A DNA stretch of 64,000 bases. It comes from Tribonema minus (Eukaryota; Sar; Xanthophyceae; Tribonematales; Tribonemataceae). The notes under the pieces are model-generated. The model saw nothing but the letters and a program-made list of their open reading frames with translations. It was not told where the DNA came from and did no database searches. Of the stretch, positions 1 to 59,689 are shown piece by piece. Each line of letters starts with the position of its first letter. Position 1 is the stretch's first letter. The DNA is taken from positions 1,364,001 through 1,428,000 of the forward strand of contig JAFCMP010000514.1 of the NCBI GenBank assembly GCA_017506865.1. Direction: 5' to 3'. Position numbers and translations under genes: made by a program.

Positions 1-3000
1 CGACGATGGGCCAGCCCCCCGCCGCGGCGGCGCACGGCGCGAGGGGGAAGGCGGGTGCCAGCGCATCGGCAGTGCAGCGCACGTACGCGCCATCGAAGGC
101 CACATCGCGCATAGAGGCAACGTGACTCCACACAAGCGGCGGCATGCTGGCAAACTTGGCGACTGCGCTGGTGTCCTTCAGGCCGCCGAAGTAGGGCAGT
201 TTGAACGCGGCGCGCGTGAGTGCCTCCCTGCAAGAAGGGCGTTGCGCAGGCGCCGACCACTTGTGAGTTGTAATTTCAACTTCTTTGTATGATGTTCTTC
301 AAGATTTGTGTTGTTGCTGTTGTTGTTTCGCAAAATGATTCTGGGCGATTGTATTGTTGCTGGTGTTGTTGTTGCTGACCTGCTGGACCGGCGCATGTGG
401 TCCACTTGTAGGCTCAGTCAGTGCGGCGCGGCATGACGTGTGTGTACGACTTTCAACACCGGCAGCTGTACTGCTGTGTACTGTTGTGTACTGTCCTTTT
501 TAGTCCAGCCAGCATGCACACCAACTGCGCCAGCAGGTGAGGCGAGACAGCGGCCAGTGACAGCACGCATACATTACCCCCCCATACATTACCATGCCCC
601 CTCCCCCCCCCTTCCTGACACACAGACCCACAATGCCACAAAGCATTCAGCCTTCCGTCACCCATTTCCCTGTACCTCATTTGACTCCTAGGTCAGTAAT
701 GCCGGCTGTAAATTCACAACGACAAGCACTGCCCCCATTCTGAACGCATCAGTAGCTGTTGCATCCACGATATACTGGAAGACGAGTGGCCAGCTGTGAC
801 ATCAATTAATGTTGCTGGCAGTACTGTGGTGTGAAGATGCGGCTTTTGTGGCCTTGCCGACAATTGGACCGGCGCTCAGGACTTGCGCAAGCGAGACCAT
901 GGCTGTTGCTGACGAGCCTGCAACGCCAGAAGCGGTACCACCTGCCCGCCACTGTGCAGCAGGTGTGTGTCACTACACTGAGCACCATTGAGCACCATTA
1001 GTGCCTCACCTTATGGCGTGCCACTGCATTGAGCACGCCATGAGGTGAAGCACTCAATGGTGCCAAACTGCAGGATCTTGTGCGCTGTGCCCCTCCGCGT
1101 GTATACTAGTGCAAGCTTGAAGCTGCAGGTAGCTGTGACTTGAAGAACGCAGGTTCGACTCTGGACGCCAAACGCTGAGCATCCGTGCCGCCGTCACACG
1201 CCCTGACCTGACATCCGCCAGCACGCACGCCGCCACGAGCGCCGCCGCCCACCCCACGCTCCACCACCCGTAACCCCCCACCCCGCCCCCCTCCGTGCGC
1301 GACGCCACGTACACCAGCTGACACAGCGCCGCCACAACGCTCAGCACGAAGTGCCGCAGCGGCCACCGCTGCGCGAGCGTCAGCGCGGGCATGTGCCGGC
1401 CGTTGATGACGCTGCGCACGCCGAGCCCCCACCAGCGCGGCGCCGCCGCCGCCGGCGCCGCGCCCACGGGGTAGTACGTCTGCACCATGACCTCGAGGGG
1501 GCGGGGTTCGGGGGCGTTGAAGGGGGGTGCGCCGGCGACGGGGGTGCGGATGTGGTCGAGCACTGCTGCGACCGCGTACGGGCCGCGCGTCGCCAGGGGT
1601 AGGTATCCTGCAGGGGGGGGGAACGGCACGCTGTAATGAGTACTGTGTTCGCGTAGGAAAGGAATGGGGACGCGTATGTGGGGCTAAACACGGTCGCGGC
1701 CGGGCCGCGCGTGGCCAGGGGTACGTACACTGTAGAAGGGGGGGGGGGGGGGGGGGCAGCGGTGTTTCGTGAGCTTGGAATGAAGGCGTTTGCGGCGGCT
1801 GGGCGCTTCTGAATTGGCGCACCGCCAGGTGTGTGCGCGCGCGGAGGTTGCCTGCAGCGCTGCGAGCGCGACATGAGCGCCTGGCTGAAGGATGGCGCTG
1901 ACGCGTGTGCGACGAGGAAGCCAGGGGTTCACGGTCGACATGGCGGCGCGGTGAAGGGGGCGCGTGGCAAGGAAGGGCCGGACACATACACGTCTCATGA
2001 TTGCTGCTGTGCGCGTCTCTCTGTTGTGCACAACACGCACAGCCTGGCCTTGCAGCAAGTAAGTTTTCATCAAGTCTGGACGCATGGGTCACTGGTAAAA
2101 CAACCTGCCGCGCAAGAAGTCACCGCACCATGTATGCCAAAGCCTTGTGTGAAGCCATGCCTTTGTGTACTTCAAACGGGCACCTCTTTCATGGGAGCGC
2201 TAGAGTTTTCAACAGGATGCAGGAGGTCCCTGTCTCAGTGGCACAGGGTGCCGCTGCCTCTGTAGTGTGGCTCCGTCTGCGCGAATCTCACTGAGAAAAG
2301 GGCAACTTCAGCCACTGCGCGTTGCTGCATCTCCAGGTGCAACAGCAGGAGAAACGAAAAGCGTAGCGCTACCAGACAGCAATGCGGCACGGGCTACGAG
2401 CTGCGCACACAGGTGCTGCGCGCCAGCTGAAACACACGTTCGACTTGCCTGGCAGCAGGAAGCAGAAAAACGCCGAGAGCGTCAGCAGCAGCGCCGCGGT
2501 AATGCCCCACGCCAGTCCCGTGCTGCCCGTCGCCGCCACGATGATGAATAAGAGGATGGCGGCAACGTAGGCAGGTATCAGCTGCCACCGCACGCCGTCC
2601 AGCGTCGCATGTATTGCGAGTACAGAAGCCAGCGCCAGTGCCGCGCTGCCACCTGCGGCGGTGGCAGGATTGTGCGTGGATGGCGCCGAGACAGTGGCGT
2701 TGACGACGAATGTTACTTGAATTAAACGTGAATGCGTGTTGAGGCAAGTGGAGTGGGGCTGAGTACAACGCAACTTACGAGGTGGTGTGTCGGGGTGCAG
2801 TGGTGGCATCGCCATCTTCAAACATGCATAGGGGCATTGCTGGCCTCGAAAGGCTGCATTCGAGCGACAACACACGACCACTGCGGCGTGGCGCTCGCGG
2901 CGACAAGCTGTGTGAATGACGCCTAGCCAACACCCACCACCCACCACCGAAGCCACACATGTTTTGACAACCTGCTGTTGACCAAAAATATCACACAACC

Positions 3001-3267
3001 GCCTCGTGAGACAATGCTGGGCTTCAAGGCGCTGGCAAAACTGCACCTTCTGCGGATTACATGACGCGGAACCATACCTGGGCGCGGCAGAGCGTCCGCG
3101 CTGATGAAAGAGGCGACCATGTAAGCTGTCAGCAAGCCAGCAACCACATACTCCATGGGGGACCATAGCAAGGCGAGCAGCCTATGGCCAAGTCTCCTGA
3201 CAGGCAACTGCGTCGCTGCTGAAACAGCATCAGAGAGGCCCCCAGCAGCGGTGGAGCTCTGGCACAT
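1..3267 (-). CDS. Platelet-activating-factor acetylhydrolase-like membrane hydrolase, 5' part (runs off the window)
   Basis: Four exons, 3267-3078, 2715-2449, 1607-1208 and 227-1, join in phase 1/1/2. The N-terminal half is membrane-rich; exon 2 has the stretch VRWQLIPAYVAAILL and a long hydrophobic run. Exon 3 has TRGPYAVA...LDHIRTPV...EVMVQTYYPV, which matches the start of the PAF-AH/alpha-beta hydrolase fold (GPY-VG...D-R...vqvWYPa). Exon 4 ends in WPIVV just before the expected FSHG nucleophile elbow, which lies outside the window. Family members hydrolyse acetyl or short acyl esters of phospholipids. Intron 2 begins with GC (CAG|GCAAGT). Odd: exon 3 inserts about 80 residues, with two possible membrane helices, between the YYPV strand and exon 4. 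The ATG at 3267 is the first in frame; a Met nearer the first helix is possible. The family call is by motif; substrate is unknown. Confidence 0.72.
1690..1756 (-). repeat. Decayed copy of the exon-3 acceptor in PAF-AH intron 2
   Basis: A copy of the exon-3 start (GTACCCCTGGCCACGCGCGG, with a CTACAG acceptor just upstream on the minus strand) begins at 1729, 122 bp upstream of the real acceptor at 1607. A long C tract precedes it, as it does the real site. After about 40 bases the similarity is lost. Confidence 0.7.
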
Positions 3268-3474
3268 GGCTCGTTCCCGTTCAGTAAAGCAAAGGTGGTA
3301 CCAGCAGAGGACAATTGCTGGTGTTAACTGGCAGCACTCGCTTGCGGAGCGGGCGGACTAAATGGTTTATTCACTCTACACAGAACAACGTCATGTACTT
3401 GACACATGTGACTTGCCAGTTGTTGAAGTGTGTGAATCCTCGAGAGCGAAGCTTGCAGGGGCGAAGTTCGGCGT
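3268..3474. promoter_or_regulatory. Shared divergent promoter region
   Basis: The 207 bp between the start codons of the PAF-AH-like gene (minus) and the DUF1499 gene (plus). The two genes are head to head, so both promoters and 5' UTRs must lie here or overlap the genes. No TATA box or other known element was recognised. Confidence 0.4.
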
Positions 3475-6851: not shown

Positions 6852-9800
6852 CTAGAACGGACACCCGCCCCCTGCAGCACTGCCACCGCCGCCGCCGTCG
6901 CCGCCGCTGCCGCCACCTCTGCCTCCGCCACTGAGGCTGCAACTGCCGTCACCGCCGTGCTCACTGCCTCGCGGCAAGCCATCCTCACCCCCAGCGCCAC
7001 CGCTGCTGCCGCCGCCGCCACCGCCACCGCTGCTTCCGCTGCCGCGCCGCCGCCGCGCCGTCATGCGCAGCCCGTCAGCGGTGTGGATCGTGGCGCCGGT
7101 GACCATGCGCGTCTCGCGCGGCGCGCCCGCGAGCGCGAGGTCGAAGTCGTGCAGCAGCAGCGCGAGCGTAACCGTCGCCTCCATGAGCGCAAACTGATCG
7201 CCGACGCACTTGCGCTGGCCGCCGCCGAAGGGGAGAAACGCAAAGTCGGACGCGATCTCGCTCGGGTAGAGCCCCGCGAGGCCGACCCTGGGGTCAAAGC
7301 CGGCCCAGCCCGTGACTCTGCAGGTCGATGAGCGAGTGAGTGAGTGAGTCGATGAGCTTGAAGGGGAGGAACACAAAGTCGGACGCGATCTCGTTTGGGT
7401 AGAGCCCCGCGCGACCGGCCTCGGGGTCGCAGCCGGCCCAGCCCGTGACCCTGCAGAGTCACAAGGGCGAGTCGATGAGTGAGTGAGTGAGTGAGTTAGT
7501 CGATGAGTTTGAAGGGGAGGAACACGTAGTCCACGGCGGCGTCGCTGGGGTAGAGGCCCGCGGCGCCCGCGTCCGGGCTGTAGTCGGCCCAGCCGGCGAC
7601 GCTGCGGCGCGCGCGCGGGCCCGAGTTGCACGTAGTGAGTGAGTGGGTGAGTGACGCGGTGAATGGGTCAATTACTTCATAGCGACATGTGCATTGGCGT
7701 ACACTTAGGATTAGGCTTAGGCGACGCGTGGTGCACGCGGATGCGGGCTGAATGTAGTGAGTGAGTGGGAGAGTGAGTCAGTGGGTGAGTCAGTGACTTC
7801 AAGCCAGCGGCATCTGACAACGGGCGCGTCAATGGTGTAACTGCTGCCTGTATGGGCGCCCACTGGTGGTCTACGTGCGCGCTTGTGATGACCTCATTGC
7901 TGAAGTCGAGCACAATGCGCTACCCCTTACCCTTGTCCTGAGGTCTGTTGCGAATGCACAGAAGCCTGTGGCATCAGTGCTCAGGGGTATTCTGCACCAG
8001 CTTGCAGAGACGCGGCGGCGTGCACGGATGTGGGACATGAAGGTATTGCAATTAAGCCAGTGAGTCAGCGAGTCAATCGCTGGGCCTGCTGATAGGGGCC
8101 AAGAGCGTGCATGCAAGTAAACAAAGGTGTCACTGTTGCCGTCCTTGGCATGATCTGGTAATTCACATGCTTCTGATGGCTAGCCCATTACCGCTAGAGA
8201 GGACGGACGCGCAGTCTGCAAAAACCTCGCTGGTTCTATGAACGTAGGTGTTGAAACTTCAACAAGGCTGCAGCTACTGCAAGCCTGCTCGCCGACACAA
8301 GGCTTAAACGTCATGTCATTCACGCCAATGCCATCATCAAATACCGCCATCACTGCGCGCTCACCCCGGATTGCTGTGCGGCCGCAGGAACCGCTCCGGG
8401 TCGTACTTGGCCGGCTCCTGCCACAGCGCGGGGCTGCGGTGCAGATTCCATGTCGATATGAACACGTCCGCACCCCTCACGAGCCGCACGCTGCCCCTCG
8501 CCTCCCCCTCTGCAGCGCCAACTCCACCCGCCCCCCGTGTTCCCGCGCGTCGCTGCGCGCCGCTGCCGCTGCCGCCGCCGCCGCCGCTGCCGCTGCCGAT
8601 GCTGCCGCCAGCGCCGCTGCTGCTGCCGTCACCGCCGCCACCGCCGCTGCTGCTGCCATCACCGCCGCCACCGCCGCTGCTGCTGCTGCCGCTGCTGCTG
8701 CTGCTGCTGCTGCCCCAGGCGCCGCCGCCGCCGCCGCCGCCGACGGGCACCACATCGCCGCGCAGCGCGCGCCGTATGAGCACGGGCGGCTCGGGGACAG
8801 CCGCAGCGCCTCGGCCAGCCCGAGGCGCGTCAACTTCAACTTTGGAATGTCGTCGAAGGACGGCGCGCGGCGCGGCCCGAGGACCGTGGCGATTTCCTCG
8901 CGCACGCGCGCGGCTCGCGCGGCGTCCTGCGCCAGGTTGAAGAGGGTCCAGGTGAGCACTGCCGCGGTTGTTTCGTGGCCCGCCACGAGCATGGTCATGA
9001 GGTCGTCGCGCAGCTGCTTGGAGGTGGTGTCCTCGCCGCGCATGTCGATCAGGAAGCGCAGCAGGCTGCGGCGACGGCGGCGGCAGTAGGGGGGGGGGGG
9101 GGAGGAGTAGCGTTGTTGAGACCGCGTGTACATTCGGGGGTGCACTTGCTGTGTAAGACCGCAAAATCGGGCACCGCATCAGCCGAATCGGAGTGTCTCA
9201 TCCAACATTGGAGCTCCAAAGGCTTGCCGTGTGCGGTCAGCAGAGCGGGGAGGCGCACGCTGTATGGCACACCAAGGCCTCGATACCGTTGACAGAGTAG
9301 GATGCGTCTGGTCGAGCACTGCTGTGGTGTTCAGCCGGACAGCCCTGCATTCAAATGAAAGCCGTGCTTCAGCAGTGTAGAGCAACGGGTGTACGCAGGT
9401 GAGGAACGCGCGAGTGCTTGCGCAGCGTGCAAACATAAGCCATCACATCGTCTGAGCGACACAACCGACCAGTAACTTCAAGCGCGTGACTCAACTCTCA
9501 TTCCGAGACCAGAGTGCGCACGAGAACACAGAGCGATGAGCACTGCCCCTTACGACTCAATCGCAGGCGGCGTAACATAGCCACGTGGACAGAGGGTGGC
9601 AGCACCTCCTGCACCAGTTTAGTACTTCAACTACAGTTACTGAAGTGTATTTATTACCTTGAATCATCAGCTTTATCCAAGTCTCTCCCCTCCAGCTCAG
9701 CAATGTCAGCCACCTGCAAGTGCCAACAAAAAAATGATCGCAGAAGATATTTGCTGCAGACTGCAAGAGACAGCAACAGAAACATACCGGCAGATAGACG

Positions 9801-12800
9801 CAGACTGCTTTGCAAAAATACTTGTGGCAAGAACGTATACGTCACGTGCGATGGCCGCTTGTGAGCTACTGTACTTTGAATAGGCCGCCTCCGCACTGCG
9901 CAAAACTTTCTGCTTGCGACGCTGTGTATTCAACGCAAGTTGAAGTTGCGGTTCAACAGGGAAAGCTGGACAAAGCTGCAGAGCCGTTTTCAAGCAGTTC
10001 TCGACGCTTATACATCAAGTACATGTGTACTGCAAAGTACACACGTGAGCTTGACAATAGCAAGCGACCAGCCTTGTGTAAGCTGTGGTCATGCACGGTC
10101 GCACAGGGAGAGTCACCTCTTGCGTTTCAGCCGCCTTGGCGATCAGCTCGTCGAGCACGTCGTTCAGCAACTTCAAGTCGTGCTTGAACTCCGCCTGGCT
10201 CGGCAGCAGCCGCGACGCGAACGGCAGCTTCCAGTAGGGTATGAAGCTGGCGCTGCGGTGCTCGGCCTCCCTGAGCACGCGATAGACCGCCTGTGTCGTG
10301 CACACGAGAAAGGGGACAATGCAGGGGAGTCTGGGTCAATGCAGGGGCAAGGTAGGGGGGGGGGGGGGGCACGACACACGAGCTCGGGCGTGGTAGTTGC
10401 GATACAGTAGTGCCAGAACGGATGACTGATTTAAAACATATGACACCCGGCAGGTTGCAGCTGCCCTGTCTTCAGCGGCCGTGTAATGTGTACGGTCTGC
10501 TCCGAAGACACACGCACGCGTCATGACACATAATAATAATGGTTATAACAATAACGGTTGTAACAGCTCCAAGCGAGCGAAGGATTGCGTGAAGCACAAG
10601 CATGCGCAGACGCTCTCGCTTCAGGTTTCAGCTACGCCGCGCATGTCTGTAGCTCGGAGTGCTGGATATCAGCAGATACGCAGCTGCCAGTGTAAGGCGG
10701 TGTGAGGGCGACTTGGAGGTTGCCTTCCTGAAATTGACAGAAGGTGACTACACCAATGCAGTCCTATGCGAGTCACGTACCGATCTCGTGTGACCTACAT
10801 GTAAACTACTCGGTCTACAGCACTTCAAGTTCTTGTTGTCGAATTCTACGTGGGGTGCGACATCTCATGTACCACCAAGGCCAGGAGACATTTGCTGTTG
10901 TGTCATGAACTGACACAGGACAAGTGCTCAACCATGTTTACTGACAGCGCTCAGCAACGGGCCACCCTGCCCCTCCCCTCTTGGAACTGCCATGTGGGTC
11001 ATTGCCTTTGGTCACCGGCAATGGCAGGGGCTGCCAAAGTTCAACTTCAACCAGCGCAGCCGAAGTCACAGCAATGCACTCTTGCACAGGCTGCATGTAC
11101 TTTGAAGTATGTATATATAACGCTGCTGTGGAAACTACCCACATGCATACATACCTTGATAACCGGCGACTCGTTGGTAGTGCTGCCGAAGTCGTAGTTG
11201 AAGACGGCGCGGCCTATGATGTCCAGGCTCACGGAGCAGAACTTCTCCTCCATGTCCAGCACGCGGCCCTCGTCGGCGGCGCGCCCGACCTGTCGGCAGC
11301 AGCATCGCTCAGGGTGACGTAGTTAGGCGGGGGGGTGGGGGAGGGGGGTAATTCAGTGCAGCTGATCCGCGTCAAAGGCGCGCCCGATCCTGCGTCTCGC
11401 AGTTGAAACGGCAGCAGCACTCAGCGACGGCGGCAGCGCTCAAGTGGAGAAAGAATGACTGCGTTGAGCGATACCCCCGAGCCGTGTGCGCCATACGCAT
11501 CAGCGCTGCACCGCGCTGTGCTTCGATGGTGTACATGCGTGCTGAAGTACTGAAGTGATCGGCAATGCGCATTGAGACACTTTCAAGGTGTTCACAAAGA
11601 CACACATAGATTCTGCTTGCAAGCTGGACATCCACCATCTGGGCTTTTTTGCGCCCTGAGCGATAATTAACAACAAGCACTAACTGAGGATATGCCCTAA
11701 CGGCCACTTGGAAATGTTGTGTCTGCGGACGGAAGATTACCTCAGCAAGCAGCCCACTCAAACATGCTGTGTCTTCGGAGGGACGATTACCTCAGCCAGC
11801 ACTTGTGGAAGCCCGGCGCAATGGAGCACCTCACTCCGTCAAACTTTACTCATATAACTTCAAACTTGAAGTCTGGCCCGGTGCCTCACCTCATCCAGCA
11901 GTGCCTCGTTGCACTCAGCAAAGAGCCGCACCATGCGGTTCAGCCAGCGCTTGTGGAAGCCAGGCACGATGGCGCGCCGCCGCACCTTCCACGTCTGCGG
12001 ATCCGCGGGGATGAGGCCCTTGCCCATGATGGGCTCCTGTTACACAGCGGTTACGGCGGTTACGAGTGCAAGTATTGTGTGCGTGAGACAAGAGGCTCAC
12101 TCGTTATAGGAAATACAGCTATATACCATGGAGAACATGTATGCGTAATTTTCAGTATACATATACATGATACAGGTGTACATAAATGGCGGTATAGAGT
12201 GTCATGAGTGGCCTTTCACGTCTGTGGATCCGCGGGGATGAGGCCCTTGCCCATGATGGGCTCCTGTTGGACAGCGACGACGGTTACGCGTAGGATTGCA
12301 TGAAATCATACTTGGCCACATACATACGACGTATTTGGTGCGTATTTGGCAACCAGGAATACGTCTTGAGCAAGCCTCGAGCATGCTGCGCGAAGGGCGT
12401 TTTCTTTTGGGGGGCATGTGGTGAGTCTGCTCGATTCAGAGCATACAGTCCACCACGAAAGGGGCACTTCAACTCAGAAATAAACTTCAAAATACACTTT
12501 TGTGCAACGCTAGTTACGTGCGCAAGTGTTGTGTGCGTGATACGAGGTGTTCACTTGTTATACAGCTGTACAATGCGGAGTACATCTGGCGATGCTGTAC
12601 GCACTTCCGCGATGCGCATTGAGACACTTTCGAGGCGTTCGCAAGACGCATGTAGATTCTGATTGCAGGCTAATCATCCACCGACTAGGCTTGTTTGCGC
12701 CCGCAGTGAGAATTCGTAAAAAGCACGTGTATGCATGCTTCAAGTATATGTGTACATGATGCAGACATGTACGCGCATGGCGCTGCGCAGTGCAACGAGT

Positions 12801-14870
12801 GGCAGTGAAAAGTGGCGACACCGTGCGCGCAGGCGCATGCGGTTGGTGACCTCCTGTGCAACACTTTGTGCGCTGCGTGCCACATGAATATGTACTTCCA
12901 GTGCCATGGCCAGCACTGGCTGAGCGTTGACGCGCCACTCTTACATGCAATGTTGCACACTCGTACACGCAATGTTATGAGTTCTCAAAGGGCGCAGAGG
13001 GCAACAAAGTTGTTGAGTGTTTTCCATGGTAACAATACACCGCACGTGCGAGAATCAATGCAACGCAGTTGCTCGCACCCTATCCATGCCCCACCTCGGT
13101 ATTGTGTACAACAGGACACAGTGTGCGGCGGCGCATTCTCTCACCAGCACCTGTGTACCGTACATAGGCACTGTGTACAGTACAGCAGAACTGTGAACAG
13201 TACACCAGCACGTTCACAGTACACCAGTACCAGCCAGCAGTGTGTGCAGTACACCAGCGCTGTGTACAGTACACCGTCACTTTGTACAGTACACGATGAA
13301 CTGCAGCGCGCAGTTACTGTAGCCCGCGCTCACCAGAATGGTCGCCAGCATGCCCTTGTCGTACGCGACCGCGTTGGTCTTGAGAATGTGCTTAGCGGCG
13401 ACGGGGTCGCTGATGACGATGAACGAGCGCGGCCCGAAGGCTAACTTGTACACCGGGCCGTACTGGTGGGGGTACTTCTCGAGGAGCAGGAAGAGGGGGC
13501 CGCCCGCGAGGTCTTCTAGGCGCCCGCTGGCCACCTGAAGGAGCGAAACACCGACACAGAAGTACAGGGTGTTGATGGGCGATGAGCGATGTGGGGGTTC
13601 AATTGCAAAACAGAAGAAGGTATGAAGAGTGGGACCATGAGCAACAAGGATCTTGTTGACGCATGAGCAGCAGGAAGAGGGGGGTGCCAGCGGGGCACAG
13701 TGCAGCGGTACTCAATGGGGGGCAGTGCTGCAGATGGGTAAAGCGCGGCCGACTTCGCAGCAACGAAGGTGAAGTGATGCTCTTGTCGGAGCGATGCTGA
13801 AGGTGGAGCAACGATGAACGAGGTTGAATCCGCAAGTTGAGCAACGCTGCGGGGCCGCAATGCTGCCAACAGCAAGACCCAGGACATGGAGTGTCGATGA
13901 AGATGTTGCATTTGAGCAAGCATGCAGCGTTCTGCCAACGAGCGCCACGCCTGTGCTAGTGATTTAGCTCGCATGCATGTAATAGGATACAAATTGTGTG
14001 AGCTGTCCGGCGCACGCACTGAAGCGCGGCATGGCCTCCCTGAGAGCAGGCTCAGCATTGCCGCCTTGCTGCACTTCCGTAACGCGGCTCACAGCAAGCT
14101 CGCGGGCAGCACCAAGCTGCATGAGGCTTGCGCGTCATGAAAGCGCTGGCGATGCGAGTGACACGACAGCTTCCGAACAGGGTTCCAAGTGCCACAAAGC
14201 TGCATGTGCTTTTCATTGATTCGTGCTCAGGGCGCGAAAAATCAGATGGTGGATGTCCCGCTTGCAATCAAAATCTAAATGCGTCTTGTGAACGAATGCC
14301 TTGAAAGTGTCTCAATGCGCATCGCCGATCACTCTTAAACGACATGGCCAAAATGGCTGCATGTACCTTCTGTAGAAAGGTGCTCCAGCTGCCGGTGAAT
14401 GTCCCGACGCTCGCCACAGGAGCCCCATCCAGCGAGGGCGCACCAAAGTACTTCTGCGCCACATTGCTGGCAATGATGTACAGAGAGTCCCAAGCCGAAG
14501 GCGGCGGCAGGATGTCTGGTTCTTGCTCTGGTGGTGCAGGCTGCCAAGGGGTCATCCTGAAAGGAGCGAAGCCTTGCCTGGGAGGGGCTTTGGAGTGCGA
14601 AGAGTCCACCATGGCACGCCGTGCACGTTCCAGCTGCCAGTCGAATCCGTATTTCTGGCCTTCCCACTCGTCCAAGGGGGGTGCCGATGGCTGAAGGTCC
14701 GAAGGGGGTCGATCTGCGACTGCCGAGCTGCCGCGCTCTTGAACGGCAGGCAGAGTAATGCTGAACCGTCGTGACAGAGGCGCCTGGTAACTCGCTCTGA
14801 ATGCATAGCACTCTGTCAACAGCAACGCTGCCAGCAGCAGCACTGCGCTGCCGACATCGCGAGCCAACAT
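6852..14870 (-). CDS. Cytochrome P450, CYP97 family (carotenoid ring hydroxylase type)
   Basis: Eight exons: 14870-14367, 13534-13334, 12036-11890, 11289-11155, 10290-10117, 9713-9658, 9065-8365, 7317-6852; about 794 aa. Exon 1 starts with a signal peptide ending CYA|FRAS, typical of import into red complex plastids. CYP97 landmarks follow in order: [35 protein letters not shown]...[18 protein letters not shown]-helix AGHETT, K-helix EALR, NLHRSP, YDPERF, haem loop [12 protein letters not shown] (Cys ligand), [12 protein letters not shown]97 enzymes hydroxylate carotenoid rings; subfamily unclear. Odd: exon 7 lacks one base near 8792-8796 (CCCC run). Without it neither the PEPP frame nor the phase into exon 8 works. 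About 80 Gly/Ser residues are inserted before [14 protein letters not shown], and the C-terminus is a Gly/Ser tail. Either a sequencing error or a broken allele. Confidence 0.88.
7318..7625 (-). repeat. Ladder of exon-8 acceptor copies in CYP97 intron 7
   Basis: Two copies of the acceptor plus the first ~95 bases of exon 8 lie upstream of the real one. Their exon starts are at 7450 and 7601, against 7317 for the real exon (steps of 133 and 151 bp). Each ends in TTCCTCCCCTTC followed by AA(A/G)CTCATCGACT and a CACT/GAGT microsatellite. The copy at 7450 is nearly identical to the exon; the one at 7601 is more diverged but still open. They lack the haem Cys, so they cannot replace exon 8 whole. 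Confidence 0.88.
11360..11410 (-). repeat. Partial copy of the exon-4 acceptor in CYP97 intron 3
   Basis: Minus-strand sequence resembling the exon-4 acceptor region (GCTGCTGCCG... then a GGTCGGGCGCGCC-like stretch) recurs about 100 bp upstream of the real acceptor at 11289. Confidence 0.5.
11719..11830 (-). repeat. Partial copies of exon-3 end in CYP97 intron 3
   Basis: CAGCCAGCACTTGTGGAAGC at 11793 matches CAGCCAGCGCTTGTGGAAGC inside exon 3. Around it a ~50 bp unit (GCTGTGTCTTCGGA...GATTACCTCAGC) is itself repeated (11725, 11770). Confidence 0.6.
12205..12275 (-). repeat. Decayed copy of exon-3 acceptor in CYP97 intron 2
   Basis: About 60 bp matching exon 3 from the acceptor (CAGGAGCCCATCATGGGCAA) to the ADPQTW codons. 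It sits about 210 bp upstream of the real exon (12036). The copy has an in-frame TGA where the exon reads TGG, so it is not an alternative exon. Confidence 0.8.
13150..13305. repeat. GTACAGTACAC minisatellite in CYP97 intron 2
   Basis: Seven or so imperfect copies of an approximately 20 bp unit, (C/G)TGTGTACAGTACACCAGCA, just inside the intron from the exon-2 donor. The GTGTAC/GTACAC core is palindromic. Confidence 0.75.
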
Positions 14871-17131: not shown

Positions 17132-20100
17132 ATGATCCCGAAGGCGGATCTCAGCGCAATCGCAGCGCAGTCTTCGTCGCTTGACATCGAGGCTCCCTCG
17201 AAGTTTGACTTGCCTGTGGATCATGACGACAGAGCACAAACTATCAAGTGAGTTAGCACCGGCTCGACGTCGTTTTCGCGTCATGTTTTTTCTTTGCTGC
17301 TGCAGTCTCTGACATGGCGCGCACACGCACATTGCTGTTGGCCTGTATGTGCATGTTTTTTTTGTTTAGTCAGAAGCTGAGGCCTCTTCCATGCAGTGGA
17401 TAGTTTGCCAAAACTGGAAGTTCTTTACCAGACCATGAGTTTCTTAAAATCTTGGCTCGTAAATTCACCTACTGGTGCACGTTGTTAATACACAAATGCA
17501 TAGCGGCCTTTGCAAAGGCAGCTTAAGAATCACTACCTGATATTGATATTTCTACTTTGTTGTAGGGTTGCGGTCACTGGGCTTATCTCGCACAGCAGGC
17601 CTTCAGGCCTTGACATTTTCAAACCTGATGATGGCAATGTTCTTTACCAAGGCGCCCTTTCGTGACGAATTCTCTGCATCAATCCCCTTGTAAAGGAAGT
17701 GATGCACGTCACTGAATCACCTGTTAGTCTGTGCACGGCCATCTGCAGTACCCTCCTCATGCCATCTGTCACAAGTGCACCCACCCGGGGCGATTGCCAT
17801 AAACGATTGCGGAGCGCCCGGCGCACCGCTTTTCACGGGCTGCCGCCGTAACACCGCACCCTGCCAAACACTGCGGTTCCACATCCGCCGCTGCGTCGCC
17901 GCAATTAGCGCTCTCGCCAGCTGCGCCGCGCTGTCGGCCGGTCGCTGACAGCGCTGCGCCCTGCCAAGGGCGTCTTGCGCCTGTAGCTCAGTGCTGTCGC
18001 GTCATTGCTACTTCTCTCACCCTGTAAAGTCGCTTGCTTCCTCACCCCTGGTTGGCTCGCGTGCCGGCAGAGGTGACGAATGCGCCGTTCCCCGAGCTTT
18101 CTCTACTGCCAGTGCACTGACGCTCTCCGTGAACTCGCAGAAAAGGCCCCTTTGGGTCATAACTGCCAGCTCCTACACCGACACGCTGCTCTATCAGCCT
18201 GCGCTCCTGCATCGCAACGAAAGGCCCCTTAGGGGTCATAATAACTAGCTTCTAAGCAGCCGCACTGCTCCATCAGCCTGCGCCCCTGCATTTCAACAAA
18301 AGGCCCCTTTGGGGTTATAGTACTAGCTTCTAAGCAGCCGCGCTGCTCTGTCAGCCTGCGCTCTTGCGCTTTTTTAGCCCCTTTGGGTTACAACCGACAG
18401 CTCCTAAAACGCGCTGTAAAACGCGCTGCTCTCCGCTGCGCAGGCTGCTGTCCTGCTCGCGCCCGCACATGCGCGCGTTCCACGTCAACTGGATCTCCTT
18501 CTTCCTGTCCTTCTGGCTGTGGTTCGCCTTCACGTCGCTGCTGGGGAGCATACAGAAGACCATGGGCCTGACCGACTCGCAAGTCTGGTGAGTATGTAGT
18601 GGGTGCCATGCGCTGTTTGAAGTTGACATTGAAGTTGAAGTGGGCAACCACACGGCGCTGCTGCTTGCAGCTTGTCTTGTCTGCAACACGTCACGCTTTT
18701 TCACTGCAGCTCGCACAAAGCGGGCGTGTGTTTAAGACCGCTACATCCAACGCGCTTTTGCACTCTACCGTGAGGCTGCCACGGAGTCAGTTTAGCAACG
18801 TCAGTGCACGATTCATCGCTGTACGTCTCGCCTTGCCACCCGTTTCACCTGCTCTGCTTGGGGCTGCCACAGATCCAGCGAACCGAATTCAAGGCACCGT
18901 GTGATGACACACACTACCGCTCTCAAGTCTCACCCTGCCACCTGCTCCCCCCGCTGTGCGCGCCCCCCCCCCCCCCAGGATCAGCACGTGCCTCAACATG
19001 GCATCCCCTGCGCTGTCGCGCCTGTTTGTGGGGCCGCTGCTGGAGTGGACGGGGCCGCGGCTGGCACAGGTCGTCATACTAATGGCGACGGCGGTGCCCG
19101 TGCTGCTGGGGGGGCTGGCTGACAGTGAGTACATACACAGTACAGAACACAGTGCAGGACATGACATTCTCAACCTGAACTGCTGGAGTGGACGCTGCCG
19201 CGCCTCGCGCAGGTGGTCATACTCATGGCGACGGCGGTGCCTGTGCTGCTGGGGGGGCTGGCCGACAGTGAGTTTTTAACCTCAACTTCTGGACATTTCG
19301 AAGTATGTTACTTGATGGCGACGGCGGTGCCCGTGCTGCTGGGGGGGCTGGCCAACAGTGAGTACACGGGACATTTTCAACCTCAACTGCTGGATACCTT
19401 GAAGTTTGTTATTTGGTGGCGACGGCGCTGTCCGTGCTATTGGGGGGGGCTGGCCGACAGTGAGTACATACTAGTAGTACAGGTCACAGTACAGGAAACA
19501 TGACATCCTCGACTTGAACAGCTGGATATGGTAGTGATGGCGACGGCGGTGCCCGTGCTGCTGGCCAACAGTGAGTACACGGTAACGGTACACGGTACAG
19601 TACACAGTACAGTCACAGGTCCAGAACTGAACTGCTGGATGTGGTATCATCGCAGCGGCGCTGCCCTGCTGCTGGAGAGGACTGGCCGATAGTGAGTACG
19701 CAGCAGTACAGAACACAATTCAGGTTGCTGATACAGTACAAGGTGATCCTGGACCTGAACTGCTGGAAACAGTCTGATGGCGACGGCGTTCCCCCTGCTG
19801 CTGGGGGGGCTGGCAAACAGTGAGTAATACGTACACAGTACAGGGTGACAGCTGGCTGGCGAACAGTGAGGACAAAGTACAGAGTGACAACGCCAGGGGC
19901 TGTTGAACTTGGCCGGCGGTGACGCTCCTTTGTGGCGCTGCTCAGCCGCTCCAAGGCACCCTGCCACTGCGCCCAATCAGCATCAATCTGAAGCACATAC
20001 TCTCAAACACTTCACCATCAGCCTGCTGCATAGCGCATTAACCGCCTACTAATTGAAGGGCGTACTCTCAATTACTCGCACCGTCAGTCTGCCGCATAGC

Positions 20101-23100
20101 GCATTCTCCGCCTACTGATATGATGACAGGTGACCTGAGCACTGAGGCTTGCCCCGCTGGCACGTTACCGCTTGCAGATTTTGCGGAGCTCTGCGTGGTG
20201 CGCTTCTTCATAGGCATCACTGGCGCCAGCTTCGTGTGCTGCCAGGTGAGACGGGAGTGTAGAGCGCTGCCTGTGTGACATGCTAGCATTAGGGGTAGGG
20301 TTAGGATGAGGGTAAGAGTTAGGGTTAGAGTTAGGGTCACATGTAGGGTTCGCAACAGACGTTGCAGCAAGTTCTCAGTCGTTTCTCACCGTCTCAACTC
20401 AACCACAAACGTCACACGTCTGAACTTCTCTGGCGGCTTTGTATCTAACCCTAACCCTAACCCTAACCTACAACAATGCGCCTGTCTTGAGTAGTCTACC
20501 TTGCAACATTACGTTGGCACCACTTGCAGAATGGCTCTTATGTCACCGCTTGTGACCATACCCCTCCACACCCCTCGATTCATCGGCACAGGTCTAGCCA
20601 TTGATGATCTCAAATACGCTAGGCAATGGTCAGGCGGTACGCTAAGCATGCCTATGCTTCTGCAACCTTGCCTCCCCTCACACACACACAGCAGCATTGG
20701 CATAGGTGTCAGCGACGCTTAACCCACCATCCGCCCCCTATTTCTCTTCGCCGCAGGTCTGGGCGACCCTCATGTTCTCGGACAACGTCCTCGGCGCCAC
20801 GCAGGCGAGTTTGCGGGCTATCTGACCATACCTACCCATACCTTCCCCCCCCCCAACCCCCCCAACCCCCACCGCAGGTCTGGGCTACCCTCATGTTCTC
20901 GGACAACGTCCTCGGCGCCGCGCAGGCGACGGTCGCGGGCTGGGGCAACATGGGCGCGTCCTTCTCGATGCTCGTCATGTGGGAGTTCAACGACCGCCTC
21001 GTCGGCAGCGGCGTTCCCGAGGACCGTTCCTGGCGCTACACGCTCATCCTGCCGGGCGCCGTCGCGCTAGTGTGGGGGGGGCTGCTGGCGTTCATTGCGG
21101 ATGACGCGCCGCGGCCGGACGCGCGCGTGCGCGTGCGCGACGCCAGCGCCGTCGGCAGGGTGGTGAGTGCTAGTGACTCCCGCTCCCAACGCCGCATCCT
21201 TTGGCAGTAGGTACAGCCTAGCTCTATGTCTATGTACTACAACGCAGCCTTGGCCATCAACTGACTTCCATCGCGGATGACGCGCCGCGGCCGGACGCGC
21301 GCGTGCGCGTGCGCGACGCCAGCGCCGTCGGCAGGGTGGTGAGCGCATGCAACTCCTGCTCTCACCTGTGCGTCCTTTTGCTGTAGATCCTAGCTCGATG
21401 TCTACTTAGAGCTTGGCCATCAACTTGTCGTTCATTGCGGATGACGCGCCGCGGCCGGACGCGCGGACACTCGTGCGCGACGCCAGCGCCGTCGGCAGGG
21501 TGGTGAGCACGTATGTAGTGCTGATGCCCCGATTTACCTTCAACAGCTGTCCACGGGTAGTCGGTACTATTTTACTATATTCTCAGGGTAGTGAGCCGGG
21601 ACGCGCGTGCGCGTCGCCAGCGCCGTCGGCAGGGTGGTGAGCGCGCATGCAACGCTGATGCCTCGACTTAACTTCAACAGACAAGCTTAACCCTGTGTGG
21701 CTCGCAATGACCACGAGCGTAGGGCGTAGCTTCTACCCTGCCGCTTGGCCTCGAGCTGACTATCGGTAGTGACGCGCGTGCGACGCCAGCGCCGTCGCCA
21801 GGGTGGTGAGTGCTAGTGACTCCCGATCCCAACGCCGCATTTTCTGGCAGTAGGTACAGCCTAGCTCAATGTCCCATGTACTCTAAAACAGCCTTGGCCG
21901 TCAACTGGCCATGTATCCAGGGGGCGAGAGCAATGTTGGCAGGGTGTTCAGCCAGGATGCGCGTGCGCGACGCCAGCGCCGCCGGCAGGGCGGTGAGAGC
22001 GCATGTAGCGCTGATGCCTCGATTGAACTTCAACACACACAGCTTACCTGGCGCGTGGCCCACAAGCTGACTTATCGTAGGGTTAGGGTTAGGGTTAGGA
22101 TTAGACTTATCCGCCGGTACAGGGGGGGTCACGATATAAGAGCGGGTCCGTCCCGCCAGCCTCACCGCTCTTATACCGTGACCGCTCTTATATCGTCCTC
22201 GTCCTGGGGCTTAACTAGGGCTAGGGCTAACCCTAGGCTAACCCTAGCCCTACACCTAGGGTTTGAAGTACTTAAGTAGGGTTAGTGCGTCAACAGTTGA
22301 AGTTGGCTTCGAATTAAGCCGGAAGCAACCGCACTGTGCGCTATACGCTGTGACTGATTGATACGCGCTTGAGTGTTGTTGATTGTCATACAAAATCCGC
22401 TGTTCAAGCATCGTTCGTGAGGCGGCAAGTGGTAGGTGGACACGATATAAGAGCGGTCAGCCCCGAGCAGCACCAAACCGCTCTTATATCGACCATATCC
22501 GTGTTCAGCCGTCAGACCGCTCTTATACCGTGACCGCTCTTATATCGAGCGCTCTTATATCGTAGCCCTCCCTGTAGTCGGTATCGACAGAGTGGTGAGC
22601 CGGGACGCGCGTGCGCGACGCCAGCGCCGTCGGCAGGGTGATGAGAGCGCATGTAACCCCACTCCCTCACCGTTACCCATGATGGTGAGGTTCGTAAGCG
22701 CCCTGACTTCGAGAGGCGATTCCCCGCTGAGAGCATTCAGCGCTGCTGAACCAAACGCGTGCCGCATCGCAATGTGTCATTGCCACATGTACTGCTTTCA
22801 CAAGCTGCAGCGACTGCGGGCCGGAAGAAGCGCGGCCACAACAGGCTTCCGCTCTCATGCTGATAAGCATGTGTGGCTCGACAGCACCCTCAAGGCGGCG
22901 ATGGAAGGCGGCAATGCCCCCAAACGCTTTTGAACTTCAAGAGACATAATTCCGTGGCGACGCTCCACTGAAGCTAATCCTGAGCGCTGTTGTGTCGCCT
23001 ACTGCGGCGCACAGGTCATCCGCAAGGCGGCGACGAAGGGCGGCAACGACCCCAACTCGTGGTACCTGGCACTGCAGTACGCGGCGTCGTTCGGCATCGA

Positions 23101-26100
23101 GCTGCACCTGTACAACTCGGTGAGCGCTGCTGCACGACGACAATGGATCGCAGATGTACACTTTGAAGTGCTGATGAGGTACATATATCTCGGTACAAGT
23201 CAGTGAGCGCTGCTGCACAACATTGCATGTCGATCTGCCTCCGAAGTATTTCTGAAGTGGTGATGAGGTATACTCTCTCTGCCTTCTCGTGCGATGGCGG
23301 GTGTCATAGTTCACCTACAGATGTGCCGGGCAATGACAGTATGTGGCGTCGTTCGGCATTGAGCTGCACCTGTACAACTCGGTGAGCGCTGCTGCACGAC
23401 GACGACGGATCGCATATGCACACAAAGTATTTTTTAAGCGCTGATGGGTTATACTCTCGCCGCCTCGTGACGACGGCTGTGACGGCTTTCATACTTTGAC
23501 CATGCCAAGCAATGAATGGTCAGCAGCGCCGATGAAAGCAGAGCGCAAAATGCTTTCAAACCCAGCATCCTGTAAGGGATCCTTTGGCTGGATCTCATGT
23601 CCAACATGACCTTCAACAGCCGCGGCTGCGCTGCACTGCTCATTGTCTCTCACACGCAGCTGGAACGGAATCGACGCTTGCGTGCCTGCGCAGTCCGCCG
23701 GCGCGTGCCGCATACACTCGCCGCATTCACCAGGCATGCATGTACGTGCAGCGCTGCTGAGCATCACCACCGACACGTTTGCATGCCTACCTACCCCCCT
23801 CGCAGCTCACCGGCTACTTCAACGAGCGGTTCGGCGTCACGCCCGGGCGCGCCATCCTGGTGACGTCCCTGTTTGGCTTCTTCAACGTCTTCGCGCGCCC
23901 GCTGGGCGGGGTCCTGTCGGACAAGCTCGGCGCGCGGATGGGGCCGAAAGGGCGCCTGCAGGTAGGTTAGGCTGCAGCTCATATCTATGCATACTTCTAG
24001 CATTCTGAAGTGTTATCGAAGTATGTAGGCGGTACCTCGTACTTTGTAATGCTCTGAAGGTGTTATTCTCAGGTTTTACCTAGCTTTGAAAGTGATACTT
24101 GCAGAGCTCGGCGCGCGGATGGGGCCGAAGGGGCGCCTGCAGGTGGGGTAGGCTGTAACTCGAATTCATTTACACTTTGAACCTCACCATGTAAACATTA
24201 ACAAGTGAGGCTGTAGCTTGTATTTGAATTAGAATGAGAATACCTTGGAAATAACTGATTGCAATCGTTTCGGCTGAAGGGGCGCCTGTAGCCCATGCTT
24301 CTATTCGATACGCATGTTGGTCCCCATTTAAGTACTTCTCGAAGCACTTCAAGTATCACAATTCAAGTAATGCGAATCCCCGCACAACAGCAAATCCTGC
24401 TGCCCTCCGACGCGTCGCACTTCACGCAGGGCCACGCGGCAATGCTGCTGCTGGAGGCTGCTGATACAACCACTCCAACAAATCTGCCACCGTCTGACCA
24501 CTGCTTTAATGCACTGCCACCCACAATGACCTGATAGCATCCAACCTTGACCTCATACCTACAAGGTACATCTCACTTCTCACTGCGCGCAGGGCCACGC
24601 GGCAATGCTGCTGCTGGAGGCGGCGCTGCTGTAGCCCCATGGGGACGCAAACGCGTGCATCAAGCTCAACCTCAAACGCAACATCAACCCCTACCACGCT
24701 GACGGCTGATGCAAATCCCAACATTACAGTAAATCCTGCTGCCCACAAACGTGTCGCACTTCACGCAGGGCGACGCGGCGGTGCTGCTGCTGGAGGCGGC
24801 ACTGCTGATAAAACCACTCCAACTTCATCTGCCACCTCTGATCACTACTTCCATGGACTGCCACCCCACAACGAACTGATAGCATCCAAACTTTACCTCA
24901 TACCTGCACTGTGCATCTCACTTCCTGCTGCGCGCAGGGCCACGCGGCAATGCTGCTGCTGGAGGGGGCGCTGCTGGCGGCGTTTGCGGCGGTGGGCTCG
25001 CTGGCGGCGGCGCTGGTGCTGCTGAGCCTGCTGAGCATTGCCGTGCAGGCAGCGGAGGGCCTCTGCTTTGGCGTCGTCCCGCTCGTGCAGCCGCTCGCGA
25101 GCGCCACCGTGTCGGTGAGTGCGGTGTGCTCTTTCACTTCAAGTGATTGAAAACTTCAAGTTGAAGTTGGGATGATGCGTCCCGCTCGTGCAGCCGCTCG
25201 TGAGCGCCACCGTGTCGGTGAGCAGTACTTCTGTAGTAGTGTGCTCTCTTCAGTTGAAGTGATTGACAACTTTAAGTTGAAGTTGGGGTGATGCTGAGCA
25301 TTGCTGTGCAGGCCTGGAGGGCCTCTGTTTAAGCGTTGTCGCCGCTCGCGAGCGACACCGTGTCGGTGGGTTGTGTGCTCTGTCCAGCATCACAAGTCAT
25401 CGACAACTCAAGTTGGAGTTGAGATGATGCTGAGCATTGCTGTGCAGACATAAGAGCCTCTGCTTCAACGGATCCCGCTCGTGCAGCGCCACTGTATCGT
25501 TGAGTATGTAGTGGTGTGCGCTTTTGAGCCTCCAATTGGCAACTTCAAGTCAAAGTCAGGATGATGCTGGAGCCGCGGCCGCAGTAGGCCTCTTCGGCGG
25601 CGTCCCGATCGTGCAGCCGCTTGCGAGCGCCACCATGTCAGTGAGGAGTAGTGTGCACTTTTCAGCCATGAAATGTGTCACTGTGTGCCCGCGTGCCTAT
25701 GGCCTGGCCCGCGGCAATGCTCACTTCATGTTTGAAGTTTGACTGAGAACACACACACACAGGTGGTGCGCTGCCGATCACGCCGAGCACCAAGTGCAGC
25801 AACCTGCAAACATCACGCCCACAAGCCACTCTGGTGATGCGCAGAAAGTGCTGATCATGACTGTGGCTGTGCGGCCACACTTCTTGTCTTCAACTTCTTC
25901 TCATCTTCTTTTGTTTACTTCAACTTCTCTTTTTTTTGTGTTAACCTCAACTTCTCCTTGCGCCCCCCCGACCGCCCTCCACCCCCCACCCCCCGCAGGG
26001 CGTCGTCGCCGCCGGCGGCTCCCTGGGCGCTGCGGCGCTCGCCGCCGCCAGCGCGTGCGGCGCGCGCACGGAGACTGTGTACGGCTTTGCCGCCGGCTAC

Positions 26101-28179: not shown

Positions 28180-28215
28180 TCAGCCCGGGCAGCGGCGCAG
28201 CAGCAGCGTCGCGGT
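28108..28215 (-). repeat. Tandem copy of the UBXN11-like stop-codon region
   Basis: A 57 bp unit covering the last codons and stop (CTGCTGCTGCGCCGCTGCCC, then GGGCTGACGG, on the minus strand) is repeated immediately downstream (about 28108-28165), with one base change at the former Gly codon. Confidence 0.8.
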
Positions 28216-30063: not shown

Positions 30064-30562
30064 GACTGAGTTTTGCAGGCTCGGCGATCACATTACTACT
30101 ACTTCAATTTAAAAAGAACACATTTGACGGTTTTTCAAATGTAACGTTCGACCAAAGAAAAGCCTCTGATTATGCGCCTTACTTACCAACACGTGCCCAA
30201 CTTGTACTGCTGACTACTTGCGTCACGGTATGCACAGATGCCGTCGTTCCAGTCCTATCCCCAGCTAAGCCGATGCTGCAAACCCTGACAGCACTGCGCA
30301 TGTGGATCGATCGTACTGCTTCGTGGCATACAGCATGGAATTATACACTGACAACATGGTAAACTGTTGTGCTGCATGATGTATGCACACAAGGAAACTG
30401 CGCCATTCTTTCCAGCATTGACACACGGCAGCAGCAGGATGGAATCGCCTGTTGTGCAGTCGCTCGCTGCCAACATCTGCGCATTCGCGACGCGCACACA
30501 CACTCACATAAGCAAGACCCTCGGCTCAAGGTGAATGGCCCTGCTAATGCAGTAAGCGCGTG
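30064..30562. other. Intergenic, UBXN11-like promoter and POLR3K 3' end
   Basis: AT-richer than its surroundings (for example 30100-30145). It must contain the UBXN11-like promoter and the POLR3K 3' UTR. Three short overlapping minus-strand frames exist near 30265-30529 with no recognisable protein. Confidence 0.4.
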
Positions 30563-31977
30563 TCATTCATTCCAGCGGAAGCCACAGTCGACGCATTTGT
30601 AGAACACGGTCATGGGCTCGTCAGCGGATCTGAGCTGCGCCTGGAAGAAGTAGGCCTCCTTGCCCTTGCCCGGATCCCTGACATGCCGCAGAAAAACAGA
30701 TCAGGAGTCAGCTGGCTCTCGAATGACGTAGACAGCAATGGAGTCAATGTGTGGCTTATGCAGGTCAGGTACGTGTTGTACTGATGGTGGCCCGATGATA
30801 TGCGGAGCTCAAAATGCGGACAAACAAGCCTTTTTTCATCAGCAGAAACTCTGCGTGTGACTTCAGATCTGTGGCCGGCTGCAGGCTCTGAACCACCTAC
30901 TGTTGAGCAGGCATGCAAGGTCACTGTGCGACAATTTGACTTCCTGCTACTACTACTGAACTCAATCCCTGAGCATCGGCAACTTGCGCGAAAAGTCTGC
31001 ATTGCAGTTGAAGTACATCACAAATGCTTGGCGGTGAACTTCGATGGTCGGCGCACTGGGTATTGCATCAGACACTAGCAACTGACTGTGGCGCTCGGCA
31101 CACTGTGGACGCACAGAGCGCCCAGTGGCAGTGCTATGCGCACAGCCAACTCACCAAGCAACACGCGCCAGCTACCCCACCCCCCCCCCCTTCCCATCCA
31201 AAAGTATGTGAAAGGGTCTGACAACGAACTCACAACCGCATCAGACTTCTGGCTTACTGTGTGCGATAATTAGGCATACACAACAACTAATGGGCTCGTT
31301 GGTGCGCTGTAGCTCGCTTGCGCTGGTCGCGAGCGCCGCATGCACGCACCCCTGTGCGTGCGTGGAGCGTTCACTCACTTGCAGTTGGCATCTGACCCTC
31401 GTTTCTGGGACATACTTGCTCGCAAATAAGTACCAGCAATTGTCACAGAATGAGGTCAGCAGCGCAGTGCGGCGAGCATGCGCTGTCCGCAGCAAACACG
31501 GCGCTTCCGCACGCGTGCACGCAAGGACGGCGCCCACTCCCACGCTGTCGGCACCTGCCCTCGCCTGTGAAACACTTCAAGTATTGAAGTCGCGCGCCGT
31601 GGCGACACAAGCCTGTGATCTTGAGTTGGTCTGAGAGGACGGTCAACCATTTCTTTGGGCTTCTGAAGAATGGGAAAAACTAATACTTTGAAGCAAGATT
31701 TTACGAAAGAGTGAGGAAGGGGCTCGTGCGGCGCGCGCGGAGCGTCCACTCACTTGCAGTCGGCGCACGCCACGGGCGCCTTGTCGACGTTGACCCACGC
31801 GTCCGCGCCGCCGAGCACGTCGTCCACCTCCTTGCGCTGCAGCGTGAGCGCCTTGGTCACCTTGCCGCCCTGCCCGAGCGGGTGCACGTACGGGCACGTC
31901 TGGCACGCAAAGCGCTGCCCGCCGCGCGTCGCCGCCTCCACCATGAGCAGGTTGCCGCACGTGGGGCAGAAGAGCAT
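30563..31977 (-). CDS. POLR3K: RNA polymerase III subunit RPC10/C11 (POLR3K)
   Basis: Two exons, 31977-31754 and 30677-30563, phase 2; 112 aa, close to the 108-aa human protein. N-terminal zinc ribbon: MLFCPTCGNLLMVE...FACQTCPYVHP, Cys pairs at 4/7 and about 27/30. Linker: EVDDVLGGADAWVNVDK, then CADCK. The C-terminal TFIIS-like ribbon includes the diagnostic QLRSADEPMTVFYKC and ends CGFRWNE. The RSADE acidic hairpin is the RNA-cleavage element. The subunit works in the nucleus in Pol III termination, RNA cleavage and re-initiation. The 1.08 kb intron contains nothing recognised beyond short C tracts. Start is fixed by conservation from the first residue. Upstream tandem copies carry the same start codon. 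Confidence 0.95.
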
Positions 31978-32545
31978 GGCGTCGCCCCCGCTGCGCTGCT
32001 GCCACGCCGCGCCGCGCCGAGCCTGGAGCAGTGGCGGCGGCAGCGGCGGCGGCAGTGCGCGTCAGTCATGTGAGCGTCGCGACTTGCTGAGTAGGGGGCG
32101 AGTGTGGGGATTGAGCGTTGCCGCCTCCACCATGAGCAAGTTGCCGCACGTGGGGCAGAAGAGCATGGTGTCGCCCCGCTGCGCTGCCGCGCACGCCGCG
32201 CTGCGCCTGGCGCGTGTGGAGCAGCAGCGGCGGCGGCGGCGGCGGTGCGCGTCAGTCATGTGAGCGTCGCGATTTGCTAAGTAGGGTGCGTAAGGTCGTG
32301 AGCAACGCCGCTGTAGCTATCAGCAAAGCGGCCGTGCGTAGGGCAGAAGCGCATATGCTCGCCTGCTGCAGTGCGCCGGCGCTGCGTGTGTGTGCAGCAG
32401 CAGCGGTGGCGGCAAAGAACAACCTCGGTCGTGCGCGCGCGTCGTGACTTGCCAAGTAGGGTGCGTGGTGTCGTGCGCGCGGGGGGGGAAGCGACGCTGC
32501 CGCCTGCGTCACCAAGGCTGCTGCACGTGCATAGCACGCGTGCCT
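31978..32545 (-). repeat. Tandem ladder of the POLR3K start region
   Basis: Units of 187-191 bp contain the 5' UTR and about 45 bases of coding sequence. The second unit has an intact ATG at 32166 with the first 14-15 codons nearly unchanged (MLFCPTCGNLLMVEAAT), then runs into the next unit. The third (ATG at 32354) is degraded (MRFCPTHGR). A fourth, near 32497-32540, is barely recognisable. Units share TTGC(T/C)(A/G)AGTAGGG at their joints. Confidence 0.92.
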
Positions 32546-59583: not shown

Positions 59584-59689
59584 GTAAGGCCTGCCATGCG
59601 TTGGCTGAGTGTGCAAAAAAAGAACTTCAAGTATGCCGTTGTGCACGCTCAGCCAACGCATGGCAGACCTCGCCTGTGGATAGTCGGCA

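What the first reader, a model, noticed from the sequence alone, without database searches (positions are those of the whole stretch)
1690..32545. Exon edges seed tandem-duplication ladders in almost every gene
In PAF-AH, CYP97, NRT2, UBXN11-like, POLR3K and the 46.7 kb gene, the DNA spanning an exon edge is repeated 1-7 times on the non-coding side, at steps of about 45-190 bp. All edge types are hit: donors, acceptors, a start codon and stop codons. Copies tend to shorten and mutate with distance, so the oldest are outermost. Seen directly: the copies and spacing. Inference: introns and flanks grew by repeated local duplication. Tandem duplication of an AG|GT segment is a known proposed route of intron birth, but serial one-sided growth at both splice sites, genome-scale, would be new to me. 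Null model: random tandem duplication everywhere, purged inside exons, and visible only where exon sequence marks it.
Basis: partly seen in the sequence, partly recalled or inferred. Interest (0 to 1): 0.93.

Follow-up and report, generated by a model that had tools for sequence, protein, structure and literature searches.

The report
Splice-site duplication ladders in algal introns
In this alga, short stretches of DNA that straddle the borders between coding and non-coding parts of genes have been copied side by side again and again, so that introns appear to have grown outward from their edges.

Summary
The copies are real, local, diverged and widespread, but not in almost every gene. A copy lies on the intron side of 25 of 79 curated splice edges in P450, AAA and kinesin loci (cross-locus null 1.0%) and of 17 of 46 boundaries in the window. 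Adjacent pairs are direct (257) rather than inverted (2); 170 of 257 steps are 80-199 bp.

In 19 introns, 21 of 38 edge windows but 86 of 386 mid-intron windows have a copy. Eight of these introns came from genes I already knew to carry ladders; in the other 11 it is 8 of 22 and 33 of 174. Uniform duplication gives a mid/edge ratio of at least 0.96 in all 34 settings, against 0.40 (all) and 0.52 (unseen). Exon parts of the duplicated units are short (31 distinct edges: median 56 bp, maximum 100; KS p=1.5e-5). Nearer copies match better in 9 of 12 ladders.

Best reading: recurrent local duplication focused on splice junctions lengthens introns stepwise. Why junctions are the focus is not shown. 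Start codons, stop codons and the UBXN11-like gene are not supported as separate cases.

The parts
1573..1745 (-).
   Evidence: 82% over 51; 42/49 in the edge scan
7227..7652 (-).
   Evidence: 76% over 293; translations; sequence
11985..12291 (-). P450 acceptor edge 12036 and one copy
   Evidence: 89% over 83; 59/63
13144..13294 (-). short array beside a P450 exon; weak case
   Evidence: 36/43 at boundary 13274, splice score 2.7
19037..19851 (+). NRT2-like gene: donor edge 19124 with six copies downstream
20751..20941 (+). NRT2-like: acceptor edge 20877 and one copy upstream, step 121
   Evidence: 93% over 70; 54/56; sequence
21085..22660 (+). NRT2-like: donor edge 21162 and copies downstream, steps 134-187, the last one beyond an insert
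   Evidence: 20740-22060 has no other match in the genome outside this ladder
23062..23465 (+). NRT2-like: donor edge 23119 and copies
   Evidence: 89% over 101; 62/65
23924..24161 (+). NRT2-like: donor edge 23961 and one copy, step 181
   Evidence: 91% over 57; 52/57
24370..24976 (+). NRT2-like: acceptor edge 24937 and three copies upstream
25029..25661 (+). NRT2-like: donor edge 25114 and four copies downstream
31926..32478 (-). POLR3K: boundary 32022 (acceptor-like, just upstream of the ATG) and copy upstream, step 189
   Evidence: 75% over 387; 61/68; Zn_ribbon_RPB9 E=3.3e-12
47316..47600 (-). edge of ORF 46794-47435 and one copy, step 152; gene unnamed
   Evidence: 81% over 135; 26/27; no Pfam

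Best explanation
Segments of roughly 80-200 bp that straddle a splice junction are duplicated head to tail. Because the splice site touching the exon body stays in use, the extra copy falls inside the intron and decays there. Repetition at the same junction builds one-sided ladders, older units further out, and lengthens the intron. Shown: direct orientation, step sizes, unit content, divergence, outward decline, and an excess at edges over the intron interior in this sample. Inferred: that the splice site next to the exon is the one used (no transcripts); that the duplications come from break repair with local fill-in and end joining; and that they arise, or survive, at junctions more often than elsewhere, either because breaks occur there (polymerase or spliceosome pausing, phased nucleosomes) or because copies with little exon sequence are tolerated best.
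For: 257 direct vs 2 inverted pairs in 303,498 bases. 25 of 79 edges with copies vs 1.0% null. 19 introns: edge 21 of 38, mid-intron 86 of 386, bootstrap 95% 0.37-0.74 and 0.16-0.28; 11 introns not seen before choice: 8 of 22 and 33 of 174. Uniform-duplication simulations: mid/edge ratio above 1 in 32 and 0.967 and 0.979 in 2 of 34 settings, observed 0.40 and 0.52. Sampling 11 simulated introns gave both observed values in 0.0004, 0 and 0 of 5000 draws at three rates. Observed identity of best copies (mean .920, sd .053) fits the steady-state runs (.922.058). Fit needs a 3- to 12-fold edge rate (6 of 20 grid settings inside the bootstrap box, none at 2-fold, 12-fold being the top of the grid). 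31 distinct edges: exon part median 56, maximum 100, x/D>0.6 in 2 of 31 vs 47% of 317 simulated, KS p=1.5e-5. Noncoding windows with a local partner: 0.206 within 50 bp of predicted coding, 0.076 at 600-800 bp. Two stretches picked without regard to genes: 4 of 5 clusters touch predicted exons.
Against: Exons rest on profile hits, codon usage and splice motifs, not transcripts. Eight of the 19 introns were from genes known to carry ladders and give 13 of 16 edges. Deletion and indel spectra in the simulation are assumed. In one search intron windows 755-825 bp from an edge again reach 0.24 (not overlapping an edge copy), which a simple decline does not predict; unannotated exons may explain it. 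Outside the window, windows 1-1.5 kb from predicted coding still show 0.10, so absence away from genes rests on the window. Of 11 young pairs (>=92%, >=50 bp) only 2 have match length equal to step, 8 are shorter and 1 longer, so blunt whole-unit duplication is not generally shown. Copies in the P450 paralog pair share the junction place but cluster within each gene. The junction focus could be selection after the event.
Confidence: 0.57

Rival explanations
1. Uniform tandem duplication in all non-coding DNA; exons purge it and exon sequence merely keeps edge copies recognisable.
For: Intron parts of the same units reach the score in 0.16-0.26 of pairs, exon parts in 0.86-0.88. Mid-intron copies exist (86 of 386). 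Master-copy differences by codon position 61/49/129 suit a constrained exon and a neutral copy. The edge excess is smaller in the introns not seen beforehand.
Against: Simulations with this bias built in never give mid-intron rates so far below edge rates (34 settings). Breakpoints non-uniform. Gradient with distance. Five window stretches without predicted coding: about 2 of 640 windows with a partner.
Confidence: 0.14
2. Equal birth rate, but edge copies live longer because gene conversion with the intact exon refreshes them.
For: P450 paralogs: Lc-Lex 10, Wc2-Wex 12, Lex-Wex 13, Lc-Wc2 18 differences of 91, with the same junction place.
Against: Identity and intron-part detection fit runs without conversion (INTPART 0.52 observed in 21 cases, 0.53 simulated). 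Does not explain breakpoint placement.
Confidence: 0.12
3. The copies are functional: alternative exons or spare splice sites kept by selection.
For: Splice dinucleotide kept in 26 of 32 donor and 22 of 25 acceptor copies; two P450 copies are frame-open.
Against: Steps show no frame preference (remainders 0/1/2: 18/23/16); indels inside 14 of 57 copies, 13 of them with a length not divisible by three; outward decay.
Confidence: 0.07
4. A mobile element or introner that inserts at splice sites.
For: Dispersed elements exist in this genome.
Against: Each ladder printed repeats its own exon; the one ladder searched has no match elsewhere.
Confidence: 0.03
5. Assembly or sequencing artefact.
For: Raw reads and a second assembly were not available.
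Against: Most copies differ from the exon by several per cent, some with indels, on many contigs.
Confidence: 0.03

Closest known systems
[quoted passage not shown] potato RdRp PMC4974935, abstract start seen)
   Same: Local tandem duplication of coding sequence that includes splice-like sites, one copy becoming intronic
   Different: There a new intron arises inside an exon and has the size of the duplication; here existing junctions are copied serially and an existing intron is lengthened
Small tandem duplications from break repair by fill-in and NHEJ (PMC8355091, passages seen; Vaughn and Bennetzen 2014, seen only as a reference there)
   Same: Direct local duplications
   Different: No splice-junction focus in the passages seen; that paper speaks of insertions under 100 bp; repair origin not shown here
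Introner elements (recalled; Amoebophrya PMC7789003 seen as listing and abstract start)
   Same: Intron change across a genome
   Different: Introners are dispersed families; these copies repeat each edge's own sequence
Minisatellite arrays (recalled)
   Same: Head-to-tail units, some arrays of equal step (L048, steps of 110)
   Different: Units straddle a splice junction; match quality mostly declines outward

Membership tests
Intron gain by tandem duplication | Duplicated segment straddles a splice-like site | tested here: met
Intron gain by tandem duplication | A new intron inside a formerly continuous exon | not testable with these tools
   no outgroup genome to tell new from old introns
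Introner element | Dispersed family of near-identical copies | tested here: not met
   one ladder (window 20740-22060) searched; no match outside it
NHEJ fill-in tandem duplication | Direct orientation | tested here: met
   257 direct, 2 inverted
NHEJ fill-in tandem duplication | Little or no junction homology | tested here: inconclusive
   2 of 11 young pairs have match length equal to step; 8 shorter, 1 longer
Minisatellite array | Regular period across the array | tested here: inconclusive
   some regular (L048), many irregular steps

The most novel reading that the evidence does not exclude
A DNA-level duplication process is directed at splice junctions themselves (through transcription, splicing or chromatin at exon borders) and acts as a standing mutational engine that lengthens introns from both ends in this lineage.
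Probability: 0.3. Interest if true: 0.9.

Novelty: new variant of a known kind. Interest (0 to 1): 0.7.

Why it matters
How introns get long without mobile elements is an open question. Here each step leaves a readable, ageing copy, so rate, direction and breakpoints of intron growth can be measured gene by gene. If breaks are really focused on splice junctions, RNA processing and DNA damage are linked in a way that a strain comparison could test directly.

Tried and rejected
Coding function of the copies: codon-position and indel counts do not support it. Constraint on copy splice sites: 48 of 57 kept against about 0.70 expected from the identity of neighbouring bases; the site sits inside the matched anchor, so I make no claim. 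Exon versus intron parts in copy-copy pairs: exon parts more alike, but copies were found through the exon part, so this is biased. Intron-part lengths were spoilt by overlapping windows and are not used. An old-burst age model did not rescue the null. My first guess of a green alga was dropped: two rbcL fragments match form-ID enzymes (the form label and the species behind the PDB codes are recalled). Species not identified. In one search the stretch 30200-31600 (2 of 38 windows) overlaps a likely POLR3K intron by my later reading and is left out of the 640. Of 46 breakpoint cases, 12 were outside the step or length limits and 3 of the 34 left were second views of one edge; one search uses 31. 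Papers: the listings of searches (capped lists; abstract starts) showed no description of junction ladders; searches were for the species guess and for repair.

Change made on checking: confidence lowered from 0.60 to 0.57 and the null raised from 0.12 to 0.14, because the introns not seen beforehand show a smaller edge excess. 'In all settings at least as many mid-intron copies' was wrong for 2 settings and is mended.

Full report
Setting. The window is C511:1364001-1428000 of a held genome of 158,181,000 bases in 554 contigs. The genome is eukaryotic and intron-rich. Two rbcL fragments, each with a stop, were found; one 49-residue piece differs at 2 positions from the best PDB match. I read it as form ID, the red lineage (recalled). 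Species not identified.

Observation. Self-alignment of the window gives 68 local direct pairs. They sit at exon borders, most strikingly in the NRT2-like gene, where the last ~80 bp of an exon plus the donor and part of the intron recur downstream at steps of 134-187 bp. Pfam confirms P450, SEP/UBX, the RPB9-type zinc ribbon and DUF1499, gives MFS_1 below its cut-off, and gives nothing for the two ORFs sent from the PAF-AH region. Of 46 boundaries tested, 17 have a copy; I discount two that are not splice-like.

Genome-wide sample. Exons of P450, AAA and kinesin families were located by profile. I picked 79 splice edges (41 donors, 38 acceptors) by eye from the printed borders, after seeing the loci's self-alignments and before scoring copies at those edges. 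A copy of a 70-bp anchor lies within 1.2 kb on the intron side in 25 of 79 (15 of 41 donors, 10 of 38 acceptors); anchors against other loci reach that score in 1.0%. Over 303,498 bases there are 257 adjacent direct pairs and 2 inverted; 170 of the 257 steps are 80-199 bp. Search power for steps under about 60 bp is lower. Many loci are clean: 15 of 57 show no local pair (counted).

Is the edge really special? Exon sequence is constrained, so edge copies stay recognisable longer: intron parts of the same units reach the score in 0.16-0.26 of pairs, exon parts in 0.86-0.88. I therefore compared with a forward simulation that builds this in: uniform duplications of 80-200 bp, exons changing only at third positions, substitutions, indels and deletions in introns. 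From 19 candidate introns 18 got borders by splice scores (one gave no pair), and the NRT2-like intron was added. Edge windows have a copy in 21 of 38; mid-intron windows not overlapping exon-derived copies in 86 of 386. This set is not blind. Eight introns (L058, L061, L062, NRT2-like) are from genes I knew to carry copies: 13 of 16 edges, 53 of 212 windows. The 11 others (L063, L065, L066, L067): 8 of 22 edges, 33 of 174 windows. In 34 uniform settings, including faster intron mutation, other deletion sizes and an old burst, the mid/edge ratio is above 1 in 32 and 0.967 and 0.979 in two; the data give 0.40 for all and 0.52 for the unseen introns. Drawing 11 simulated introns matched both unseen values in 0.0004, 0 and 0 of 5000 draws at three rates. 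An edge rate 3 to 12 times the uniform one reproduces the whole set: 6 of 20 grid settings fall in the bootstrap box, none at 2-fold, and 12-fold is the top of the grid. The unseen subset lies near the 3- to 5-fold rows at the rate 0.005 (my reading). In the larger, less clean set the edge rate is 0.32 and the mid-intron rate 0.147 to 0.178; there, intron windows 755-825 bp from the edge rise again to 0.24, possibly through unannotated exons.

Breakpoints. For 31 distinct edges with steps of 70-210 bp the exon part has median 56 bp and maximum 100; 2 of 31 exceed 0.6 of the step. Uniform duplication gives 29% above 100 bp and 47% above 0.6 (317 simulated); KS p=1.5e-5. In the 34-case set the rest of the unit, on the intron side, has median 82 bp. 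The duplicated segment is thus roughly centred on the junction. Selection against copies with long exon parts could produce this as well as targeting. Of 11 young pairs only 2 match over exactly one step, so the nature of the join is open.

Where copies are rare. Noncoding windows with a local partner fall from 0.206 within 50 bp of predicted coding to 0.076 at 600-800 bp; outside the window they are still 0.10 at 1-1.5 kb. In five window stretches without predicted coding about 2 of 640 windows have a partner. In two 9-kb stretches picked without regard to genes, 4 of 5 clusters touch predicted exons; one at the end of L069 touches none.

History. In 12 ladders with two or more copies the nearest matches better than the farthest in 9; pooled rank and score correlate at -0.45, p=0.002, points not independent. 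Steps show no frame preference, and 14 of 57 copies carry indels, so they behave as decaying intron sequence. The P450 paralog on C5 has a donor ladder where the window gene has none (boundary 8364). At the shared last-exon acceptor both genes have copies with the same junction place but gene-specific sequence: gene conversion, or two hits at one place.

Verdict. A real pattern, in a genome-wide sample, of direct tandem duplication enriched at splice junctions, which lengthens introns. Tandem duplication, and intron birth by it, are known (PMC2891723, PMC8355091, passages; PMC4974935, abstract start). I saw no account of serial one-sided growth at existing junctions in the listings of searches. 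The cause of the focus is open.

Noticed in passing
window 43694-44423: 730-bp element; 39 places scored at 99-100% identity; short terminal inverted repeats and 8-bp flanking repeats in the two copies looked at. A young MITE, hAT-like by recalled criteria.
   Followed up: partly
window 14203-14357 and 11554-11680 (-): About 150-bp dispersed family; 40 scored candidates including the window, the others mostly 77-85% identical, both strands. SINE-like or introner-like, unknown.
   Followed up: no
window 22080-22560: Insert inside the NRT2-like ladder with TTAGGG runs and short palindromic repeats.
   Followed up: no
L059, L060: Fragments of rbcL with stops, probably plastid DNA in the nucleus; form-ID type.
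   Followed up: partly
window 54812-59591: Larger direct repeats, 79-83% identical, 0.7-4.4 kb apart, near an ORF with a weak, below-cut-off ATG14 match.
   Followed up: no
L007, L016, L033, L045: Donors reading GC instead of GT at 4 of 41 curated donors (set typed).
   Followed up: no
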